Assembly: GCA_947176505.1 (NCBI GenBank)
Contig: CAMWQW010000003.1
Coordinates: forward strand, 173,874-237,873
Direction of reading: 5' to 3'
DNA: 64,000 bases
Origin: an uncultured Lachnospiraceae bacterium
GTDB lineage: Bacteria > Bacillota > Clostridia > Lachnospirales > Lachnospiraceae
Under the pieces are notes generated by a model. It saw only the letters and a program-made list of their open reading frames with translations, was not told the DNA's origin and did not search any database. This document shows, piece after piece, positions 13,645 through 14,882 of the stretch. The position numbers were made by a program, and so were the translations under genes. Within the stretch, counting starts at the first letter, position 1, and each line of letters opens with the position of its first letter.

Positions 13645-13755
13645 TGAAATGAAACAGCAAAATACCCTTCGCAGCTTATTCTTTTGGAAGTGTATTTCAT
13701 TGAATTGGAACGTGTATACAAATATTTTTATATAATAATACATATAATATAATTG

Positions 13756-13908
13756 CTGAAAGCACCATATAAAATGGCGTTCCCATCAGTAATCAAGTTG
13801 CTTTGCTTGACAAGATAACTTAGCCATGATATAGTGTTTTCAGTGATCGTGTTGCGGATACCTGTGAGGCCCGCGACCTAGAGAAGCTCCTGCGGGAGCT
13901 TTCTTTTT
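13756..13908 (+). ncRNA. Structured RNA upstream of the Abi_2 gene, ending in a terminator (abiF-type RNA candidate)
   Basis: This gene-free stretch folds compactly by eye. A 10-bp closing helix pairs CTGAAAGCAC (13756-13765) with GTGTTTTCAG (13834-13843) with one G-U pair, and may extend through ATAT. Inside it ATGGC (13774-13778) pairs with GCCAT (13823-13827), and TCAAG (13793-13797) with CTTGA (13806-13810). A second domain pairs GTTGCGG (13851-13857) with CCGCGAC (13871-13877). It ends in a terminator hairpin AAGCTCC/GGAGCTT (13884-13901) with a TGCG loop and TCTTTTTT. TATAAT-like boxes lie at 13731-13736 and 13743-13748. Conserved RNAs upstream of abiF genes have been reported from comparative genomics; I infer this is one, or a functional analogue. 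It could be the RNA partner or a regulator of the HEPN-like protein downstream. Confidence 0.6.
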
Positions 13909-13922
13909 TATCGGGAGACTTT

Positions 13923-14882
13923 ATGTGTACTACAAACGACAAACCTTTTTTAACATACGAACAGCAACTCAAGAAATTAAAAAGTAAAGGACTTACAATC
14001 GATAACGATGATGACGCGATAGAGCTCTTAAAAAGACATAGTTATTTTGCGCTTATTTCCGGATACAAAAACCCTTTTAAAGCCAAACAAGGTATTTATA
14101 AGCCTCATACAAGTCTGGCAGACATTTATTCTCTGTATACTTTTGACGACACTCTAAGAACGATTATTTTACGGAATATTCTCAAAGTAGAAAAACATAT
14201 CAAATCACTGATTTCCTATTCTTTTTGTGAAACTTACGGGGAAGACCAGCAATTCTACCTTGATAAAACTAAGTACAACTATTCTCCGGAACATCAGGCA
14301 GATATCAGTGATTTAATTGGTCGTTTATCTAAAATTGCCGATAATCCCAAGGACTATTCTTACATACAACATCAATTAAATCGTCACGGCAACATCCCTT
14401 TGTGGGTTATGATGAAAGCACTCCCCATAGGAACTGTATCAAAACTATATAGTTTTTTACCCCAGAGCATTCAAGCCAAAGTCAGTATGGAATTTGAACA
14501 TATTACAGAAAGCGAACTGGTTCGGATGTTAGACTTACTTGCACGCGTTCGCAATGTATGTGCCCACAACGAACGGCTTTTTAATTATCGCTACAAAAAA
14601 GGTGCTATTAACGACACATACATTCATAAACATTTAAATATTCCAAAACTAAATGTACAATATTCCAAGGGAAAACAAGATTTATTTGCCATCATCATTG
14701 TCCTTAAATATCTTCTCAGTCCGCAAGAATTTTCTTGTTTTGTAGATGACCTAGACGATGCTCTGGATACCCTATTAATTTCTACCCGACGATTAGAACG
14801 AACTCAAATGTATAAATATATGGGCTTTCCAACTAATTGGCTTGAAATAAAAGACGCCCCATATTGTAACATTATCGAATAA
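13923..14882 (+). CDS. Abi_2 (AbiD/AbiF) abortive-infection family protein with HEPN-like motif
   Basis: A 319-residue protein with both hallmarks of the Abi_2 family: the N-terminal block LKRHSYFALISGYKNPF (residues 36-52) and the RX4H motif RNVCAHNERLF (R210, H215), which marks HEPN ribonuclease domains. Family members abort phage infection, usually as RNA-cleaving toxins held in check until infection. There is no protein antitoxin beside it; instead the gene begins 15 bases after the terminator of a structured RNA, with GGGAG eight bases before the ATG. It stands alone between pseF-pseI and the beta-galactosidase genes, both on the other strand, which fits a mobile defence gene. Its AT-rich coding sequence differs from its neighbours. 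Confidence 0.9.
   Translation: MCTTNDKPFLTYEQQLKKLKSKGLTIDNDDDAIELLKRHSYFALISGYKNPFKAKQGIYKPHTSLADIYSLYTFDDTLRTIILRNILKVEKHIKSLISYSFCETYGEDQQFYLDKTKYNYSPEHQADISDLIGRLSKIADNPKDYSYIQHQLNRHGNIPLWVMMKALPIGTVSKLYSFLPQSIQAKVSMEFEHITESELVRMLDLLARVRNVCAHNERLFNYRYKKGAINDTYIHKHLNIPKLNVQYSKGKQDLFAIIIVLKYLLSPQEFSCFVDDLDDALDTLLISTRRLERTQMYKYMGFPTNWLEIKDAPYCNIIE

What the first reader, a model, noticed from the sequence alone, without database searches (positions are those of the whole stretch)
13741..14882. Abi_2/HEPN gene headed by a multi-stem RNA with its own terminator: a likely RNA-controlled defence unit
Seen: at least five helices in 150 bases (long closing helix, two nested stems, a GC-rich hairpin, a terminator) with TATAAT-like boxes just before them, and the abi ATG 15 bases after the T-run. 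The protein keeps both the Abi_2 N-terminal block and the RX4H motif, and no protein antitoxin gene is adjacent. Known: Abi_2 proteins are abortive-infection factors, HEPN domains cleave RNA, and structured RNAs upstream of abiF genes have been reported. Inference: the RNA neutralises or guides the protein, or controls read-through into the gene during infection. This is the best candidate for an incompletely described system in the window.
Basis: partly seen in the sequence, partly recalled or inferred. Interest (0 to 1): 0.78.

Follow-up and report, generated by a model that had tools for sequence, protein, structure and literature searches.

The report
Toxin gene with unlisted antitoxin RNA
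A bacterial RNA-cutting toxin gene is headed by a small structured RNA, absent from the RNA database searched, that probably keeps the toxin harmless, and a second promoter that looks like a spore-formation switch may tie the pair to sporulation.

Summary
The gene at 13923-14882 is a HEPN ribonuclease of the Abi_2/AbiD/AbiF group and a homologue of the solved AbiF toxin 8VZ6. A small RNA precedes it, at 13842 to about 13909, with its own sigmaA-type promoter and terminator. In 35 aligned loci its 7-bp stem is paired in every cell and five of seven pairs change on both sides. It matches no Rfam family at the gathering score and is not the known abiF RNA RF03085. The model built here (R1) finds it before 37 of 38 assessable homologues at >=38% identity and 0 of 27 more distant ones. 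The likeliest role is an RNA antitoxin, as shown elsewhere for AbiF. Two features were not expected. First, many loci carry a distal promoter like the sigmaE promoters of spoIIID, more often in spore-formers (significant by two of three criteria). Second, the predicted leader of that transcript pairs with the antitoxin start region and covaries with it. Its nested stems are not conserved and cross the antitoxin promoter. Nothing here was tested at the bench.

The parts
13720..13748 (+). distal promoter P1, sigmaE-like: -35 AAATATT 13720-13726, -10 CATATAAT 13741-13748
   Evidence: RCATAWAHT in 20 of 40 non-redundant loci (shuffles mean 1.2, max 5 of 300 rounds; motif defined on these loci); spoIIID-derived matrix 17 of 43 loci p<0.05 forward, 0 of 43 reverse; this window's own site is best in its region but p=0.12
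13752..13769 (+). left arm at the predicted 5' end of the P1 transcript
   Evidence: pairs with 13830-13847; left/right covariation by permutation
13807..13835 (+). proximal sigmaA-type promoter P2 of the RNA: TTGACA 13807-13812, TATAGT 13830-13835, 17-bp spacer
   Evidence: TTGAC-N16-20-TANNNW in 40 of 43 linked loci, shuffled mean 0.2; 13 of 18 further loci, shuffled mean 0.2
13830..13847 (+). right arm of the long-range helix (P2 -10, discriminator and first bases of the RNA)
13842..13909 (+). small RNA, proposed antitoxin (R1 match 13842-13917, 81.2 bits; the window's own copy was one of the 35 rows of the model)
13851..13877 (+). core hairpin: stem 13851-13857/13871-13877, inner stem 13861-13863/13867-13869
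   Evidence: outer stem 100% of cells paired, 5 of 7 pairs changed on both sides; inner stem weaker, 86.7% of cells
13882..13909 (+). intrinsic-terminator hairpin (UGCG loop) and T-run
   Evidence: sequence; paired columns; run of 3 or more T in 41 of 43 linked loci
13913..13917 (+). ribosome-binding site GGGAG
   Evidence: sequence
13923..14882 (+). AbiD/AbiF-group HEPN toxin, 319 aa; R210 to H215 at 14550-14567

Best explanation
This is a two-part RNA-antitoxin/HEPN-ribonuclease unit of the AbiF/AbiD group. P2 (sigmaA-type) makes a roughly 68-nt hairpin RNA that ends at the terminator and binds and inactivates AbiD. A minority of transcripts read through the terminator and make the toxin mRNA. 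Phage infection, or anything that stops fresh RNA synthesis, would free the ribonuclease. In this Lachnospiraceae lineage a second, distal promoter of sigmaE (mother-cell sporulation) type makes a longer version of the RNA. Its leader folds back on the bases just before the antitoxin start, keeping the hairpin intact, and so would supply antitoxin in the mother cell when sigmaA transcription falls. Shown here, from sequence only: protein homology, RNA conservation and covariation, linkage, P2, the sigmaE-like element and the covarying leader helix. Inferred: RNase activity, neutralisation, promoter use, mother-cell role and phage defence.
For: Protein: Abi_2 E 1.3e-44, AbiD E 1.6e-65, 8vz6 E 1.2e-13 single / 1.5e-28 profile with the R-x4-H aligned; R210 and H215 invariant in the 32 rows aligned. 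RNA. Linkage: 37 of 38 assessable homologues at >=38% identity, plus 9 of 9 such viral contigs and the two phage records fetched. P2 and terminator. P1. Spore link. Leader helix. Function by homology: RCd22 neutralises AbiF in cis and trans and has a terminator before the toxin gene (PMC12373285: abstract, sections 6, 7, 11, part 1 of section 13, and passages).
Against: No toxicity, binding or expression data. The RNA is not RF03085, so inhibition is inferred from protein homology and arrangement. In this window P1 scores only p=0.12. By the broad criterion 9 of 38 loci in spore-formers lack P1 and 3 of 10 loci in genomes without the spore marker have it; by the matrix alone the spore link is p=0.14. 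A loose P1 pattern is not enriched genome-wide in the host (90 hits against 76 of the reversed control). In the test set the helix signal is weaker (18 loci p=0.006; its 7 motif-positive members p=0.035), and in the 8 closest loci 26 to 29 of 500 shuffles (66 for pair types) do as well. One of the five covariation measures of the RNA stem, number of pair types, is not above shuffles (138 of 500). The leader helix also hides part of the RNA's 5' tail (unpaired 0.92 to 0.51), which could mean the opposite: an antitoxin disabled in the long transcript. Many RNA copies have no toxin nearby.
Confidence: 0.6

Rival explanations
1. The sigmaE transcript switches the toxin on: its leader masks the antitoxin's 5' tail (AGUGAUC), so the mother cell makes toxin mRNA without active antitoxin.
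For: The tail is well conserved (A1 and G4 invariant, G2 and T3 at least 90%) and its unpaired probability falls by more than 0.1 in the long RNA in 23 of 28 loci folded (mean 0.92 to 0.51); the helix covaries.
Against: The hairpin itself is not disrupted (mean probability 0.85 to 0.95) and in five loci the tail stays free (L020, L155, L156, L273, L310). The terminator still precedes the toxin gene.
Confidence: 0.2
2. A cis-only leader: the structure just attenuates transcription of abiD and no RNA acts in trans.
For: Terminator directly before the gene; RCd22 also represses in cis (PMC12373285).
Against: Conserved loop and stem well before the terminator with strong covariation; copies lie after the gene (L134, L140, L300) and away from any toxin found, which a cis leader does not explain; the RNA of the homologous system acts in trans.
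Confidence: 0.1
3. P1 is not sigmaE: an AT-rich sigmaA-like box or a protein-binding site, and the inverted repeat is a DNA operator.
For: CATATAAT contains TATAAT; the motif was first spotted by eye; loose genome-wide pattern not enriched; the spore link is not significant by the matrix alone.
Against: A matrix from spoIIID promoters finds it on one strand only, again on 18 other loci; -35 ATA at the right spacing at 19 of 35 sites chosen by the -10 motif alone (other offsets mean 1.2, max 4); arm spacing varies (loops 30-80) and non-Watson-Crick pairs are G-U 25, A-C 6, other 4, as for RNA.
Confidence: 0.3
4. The RNA guides AbiD to targets, an ancestor-like crRNA.
For: AbiD/F proteins are relatives of Cas13 (PMC12165695, abstract and passages; PMC12737573, passages).
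Against: No variable unpaired segment that could be a spacer is apparent: the loop and tail are conserved parts.
Confidence: 0.03

Closest known systems
AbiF-RCd22 of Clostridioides difficile phi027 (PMC12373285)
   Same: Abi_2 HEPN toxin, upstream RNA with sigmaA promoter and terminator, read-through to the toxin gene
   Different: RCd22 carries two RF03085 motifs; here one hairpin of another sequence and layout; no sigmaE-like promoter came up there (no occurrence of sigE and one of sporulation, in a reference title)
PbAbiF-AbiFr (PDB 8VZ6; seen in passages of PMC12737573 and PMC12373285; the original paper did not appear in the library, and was not read)
   Same: homologous protein (E 1.5e-28) with aligned R-x4-H; RNA antitoxin
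   Different: AbiFr sequence could not be compared here
Rfam RF03085 abiF RNA
   Same: short hairpin RNA before Abi_2 genes
   Different: 6-bp stem, 1-nt 5' bulge, 3-bp inner stem, 11-nt loop and a 6-nt 3' gap; R1 is a 7-bp stem with the larger gap on the 5' side; RF03085 misses the R1 loci given and R1 misses the RF03085 loci given
Type III toxin-antitoxin systems (ToxIN, CptIN, TenpIN; recalled)
   Same: RNA antitoxin with terminator before the toxin gene
   Different: toxin fold (HEPN, not ToxN) and a single RNA copy in the window

Membership tests
Abi_2/AbiD/AbiF HEPN toxins | Abi_2 domain over the curated cut-off | tested here: met
   153.2 bits against 25.6
Abi_2/AbiD/AbiF HEPN toxins | catalytic R-x4-H | tested here: met
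   R210 and H215, invariant in the 32 rows, aligned to 8vz6
Abi_2/AbiD/AbiF HEPN toxins | toxic RNase / phage exclusion | not testable with these tools
   needs the bench
RF03085 abiF RNA | match at the gathering score | tested here: not met
   no hit at gathering or E<=10 in the window; none at gathering in 20 loci, one of them the window's own, and 16 more
Type III-like toxin-antitoxin | RNA gene directly upstream with promoter and terminator | tested here: met
Type III-like toxin-antitoxin | RNA neutralises the toxin by direct binding | not testable with these tools
   inferred from RCd22/AbiF
Type III-like toxin-antitoxin | tandem RNA repeats (recalled as typical of ToxIN, not of every member) | tested here: not met
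   one R1 match in the window; L014 has two copies
sigmaE-dependent promoter | -35 ATA and -10 CATAnnnT at sigmaE spacing, over the group of loci | tested here: met
   consensus checked in passages of PMC3789822
sigmaE-dependent promoter | the same in this window | tested here: inconclusive
   both boxes present at the right spacing, but p=0.12 against shuffles
sigmaE-dependent promoter | dependence on sigE | not testable with these tools
   host has sigE, SpoIIID and Spore_III_AE

The most novel reading that the evidence does not exclude
A lineage-specific RNA antitoxin of an AbiF-type ribonuclease is wired into sporulation. A mother-cell sigmaE promoter makes an alternative long antitoxin RNA whose 5' leader coevolves as a clamp on the antitoxin start, deciding whether the mother cell is protected from, or killed by, its own ribonuclease. 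Solitary copies of the RNA serve as anti-addiction modules.
Probability: 0.4. Interest if true: 0.82.

Novelty: new variant of a known kind. Interest (0 to 1): 0.62.

Why it matters
AbiD/F-type toxins are proposed ancestors of Cas13 (PMC12165695, PMC12373285), and how their RNA partners diversify is open. This gives an RNA family without an Rfam match, cleanly partitioned from more distant Abi_2 genes by toxin clade, and a testable link between a phage-defence toxin and sporulation. In 10 paper searches (listings, and passages of the papers named) I saw no report of this RNA or of a sporulation promoter on an AbiF/AbiD system. Most subscription papers are not in that library, and the PbAbiF paper did not appear in it.

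Tried and rejected
Rfam abiF match: rejected. One five-helix RNA: rejected, promoter P2 runs through it. Invertible promoter (repeats flanking P2): rejected, as a P2 pattern points towards the RNA in 43 of 43 linked loci in its relaxed form. Rigid DNA operator: arm spacing varies and G-U exceeds A-C. A first, unfocused search for the arms over the whole upstream region gave only a weak signal (own 14.1 against cross 13.0, p 0.0025). The strong result came after restricting the left side to the bases after P1, in loci judged to have P1, so it was re-tested on other loci. An exact P1 pattern in the host genome gave 0 hits and a one-mismatch pattern 90 against 76 for its reverse: not informative. 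The second spore marker was meant to be spoIVA, but PF09546 proved to be Spore_III_AE and served only as a spore marker. A first count of the -35 used a hand-picked list of loci (20 of 36 sites); the report uses the count repeated without that choice (19 of 35). An insertion origin for the orphan in L126 was not pursued.

Full report
What is there. The ORF 13923-14882 (+, 319 aa) is an Abi_2 protein (Pfam 153.2 bits, cut-off 25.6; PADLOC AbiD E 1.6e-65; no NCBIfam match at E<=1). One PDB sequence matches it, 8vz6, an Abi family protein (E 1.2e-13; 1.5e-28 with a 32-row profile), which is the PbAbiF toxin (passage of PMC12737573). The R-x4-H of HEPN nucleases aligns and is invariant in all 32 rows (R210, H215). 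It is the only Abi_2 match in its genome at E<=0.001. The ORFs around it (transporter, NeuB/NeuA-like, sugar genes; named by eye, recalled) include no candidate protein antitoxin.

The RNA. Upstream sequences of 36 loci, the window's own included, were extracted and 35 carry the same element; L025 does not. It begins AGUGA(U), forms a 7-bp stem around a conserved AnRCYYGnGAnGMC loop, and runs into a terminator. On the 35-row alignment the outer stem is paired in 245 of 245 cells and 5 of its 7 pairs change on both sides. Over the 10 pairs tested 96.0% of cells pair, against 83.8% in shuffles (0 of 500 as high); three further measures also exceed every shuffle and one, the number of pair types, does not (138 of 500). 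Slid versions fall to 22-49%. The 3-bp inner stem is weaker (86.7% of cells). The sigmaA-type promoter TTGAC-N16-20-TANNNW lies immediately in front in 40 of 43 linked loci (0.2 expected in shuffles) and 13 of 18 further loci.

Distribution. A covariance model (R1) was run on 299 family genomes; I took the 73 matches of at least 29.5 bits. Of these, 38 lie within 800 bases upstream of a protein match on the same strand, which makes 37 distinct genes because one gene has two copies. Among the 67 protein matches (E<=1e-20), 38 at >=38% identity could be assessed and 37 have the RNA in front; the exception (G190, L025/L140) has it behind the gene. One more was cut by a contig end and one was a second piece of the same gene. 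None of the 27 matches at <=35% identity has such a match. In 398 genomes of the phylum it is nearly confined to the family (one outside match below 1e-6, G947). Of 28 relatives in viral contigs, the 9 at >=38% identity all carry it; the other 19 give one weak match (L298, 18.9 bits). The two phage records fetched, the best of 76 with a protein match, carry it too. None of these contigs was used to build R1, though some are near copies of loci that were.

Relation to the known abiF RNA. RF03085 is not found in the window at E<=10, nor at gathering in 20 loci, one the window's own, and 16 more. R1 finds nothing at E<=10 in seven loci that RF03085 had found and in 12 distant Abi_2 loci. The two differ in layout. 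Of those 12, 2 match RF03085 at E<0.1 (one over its gathering score), several others resemble it by eye, and two share a third RNA type. So toxin clades have swapped RNA partners, by sequence at least.

The distal promoter. Upstream of P2 many loci share RCATAWAHT: 20 of 40 non-redundant loci, shuffled mean 1.2, maximum 5 in 300. This motif was seen by eye first, so it is post hoc. To avoid circularity I made a matrix from 25 promoters of spoIIID in the same family. spoIIID is a sigmaE target in B. subtilis (recalled). In C. difficile the sigmaE consensus has -35 ATA and a -10 shared with sigmaK (passages of PMC3789822). The matrix finds a site with p<0.05 in 17 of 43 linked loci on the RNA strand and 0 of 43 on the other (Fisher 2.5e-15 against 0.72), in 8 of 35 unlinked copies against 3 of 35, and in 0 of 12 distant Abi_2 loci. 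On 18 further loci the counts are 6 against 0 (Fisher 3.7e-5 against 0.30), and the motif is in 7 of 18 (shuffled mean 0.6, max 4). At the 35 sites picked by the -10 motif alone in 93 loci, ATA stands at -19 or -18 at 19, while other offsets average 1.2 (max 4). The window's own site has both boxes but p=0.12.

Sporulation. Spore_III_AE is present in 33 of 41 host genomes. I tabulated 48 loci in 40 of them. P1 by motif: 22 of 38 loci in spore-formers against 1 of 10 in the others (one-sided p 0.008). By matrix: 17 of 38 against 2 of 10 (p 0.14). By either, with a looser matrix cut: 29 of 38 against 3 of 10 (p 0.010). Per genome the values are 0.03, 0.15 and 0.04. Related loci are not independent. 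The host of this window has sigE, SpoIIID and Spore_III_AE.

The leader helix. The bases after the P1 -10 are complementary to the same locus's P2 -10/discriminator/start. In 23 non-redundant loci judged to have P1 (four of them unlinked copies) the summed score is 286 against 212.9 (sd 9.9) when right arms are permuted, 0 of 20000 as high. In the 18-locus test set it is 182.0 against 162.8 (sd 7.0), p=0.006, and in its 7 motif-positive members p=0.035. Non-Watson-Crick pairs inside the helices are G-U 25, A-C 6, other 4 over 34 loci, near copies included, as expected for RNA of this strand. In the 8 closest loci the helix is 95% paired with 3 pairs changed on both sides; 26 to 29 of 500 shuffles reach this, and 66 for pair types. 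Folding 28 loci chosen for having P1, the bases -8 to -1 are mostly paired in the long RNA (unpaired 0.22), the hairpin is kept (0.85 to 0.95), and the 5' tail is half hidden (unpaired 0.92 to 0.51).

How it most likely works. By homology the RNA binds the AbiD dimer and blocks its RNase site; the terminator keeps toxin mRNA low; loss of fresh RNA frees the toxin. RCd22 neutralises AbiF in cis and trans in C. difficile (PMC12373285: abstract, sections 6, 7, 11, part 1 of the discussion, and passages). My addition is that sigmaE transcription would make a longer antitoxin RNA in the mother cell. I lean to protection, since the helix leaves the hairpin intact, but masking of the tail (toxin ON) is not excluded.

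Unlinked copies. One search examined 35 copies (34 of the 35 unlinked ones, plus L152 from another family). Two follow an Abi gene (L134, L140). Five give a tblastn match downstream or overlapping the end of the RNA (L120, L122, L128, L138, L139; that of L120 is weak), L123 starts with a short remnant by eye, and two lie at contig ends (L150, L151). The other 25 show no toxin by tblastn in the 1.6 to 3.2 kb held downstream. Neighbours include proteins that look like a zeta toxin (L130, L136) and a HEPN/MNT pair (L135), named by eye.

Verdict. A well-supported RNA-toxin unit of a known kind with an RNA not in Rfam and an unexpected, testable tie to sporulation; function unproven.

Noticed in passing
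L118-L152: 25 of 35 unlinked copies of the RNA have no AbiD toxin found downstream, several with an intact stem and P2 promoter; possible solitary antitoxins. Two sit before a zeta-toxin-like operon and one before a HEPN/MNT-like pair (named by eye).
   Followed up: partly
L161 and L162 (G060, G098): Two ~30%-identity Abi_2 genes share a third RNA type with a GC-rich terminator-like hairpin; no Rfam match at E<=0.1.
   Followed up: partly
L014 (G084:C44:248-390): Two tandem copies of the RNA motif before one toxin gene, as in RCd22.
   Followed up: no
L134, L140, L300: A copy of the RNA lies after the toxin gene; L300 and G171 (L134) have one on each side.
   Followed up: no
L028 (upstream of P1): A sequence like a Gram-positive LexA box (recalled consensus) overlaps the distal promoter region; L027 is similar.
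   Followed up: no
L126: An orphan RNA appears inserted in other sequence with a possible 6-bp flanking repeat (by eye).
   Followed up: no
L033: This homologue's reading frame contains a stop; the RNA before it is intact.
   Followed up: no
phages H3-H20: Streptococcus phages and satellite phages (52 of 76 phage records with a match) carry Abi genes of below 30% identity in the rows shown; their RNAs were not examined.
   Followed up: no
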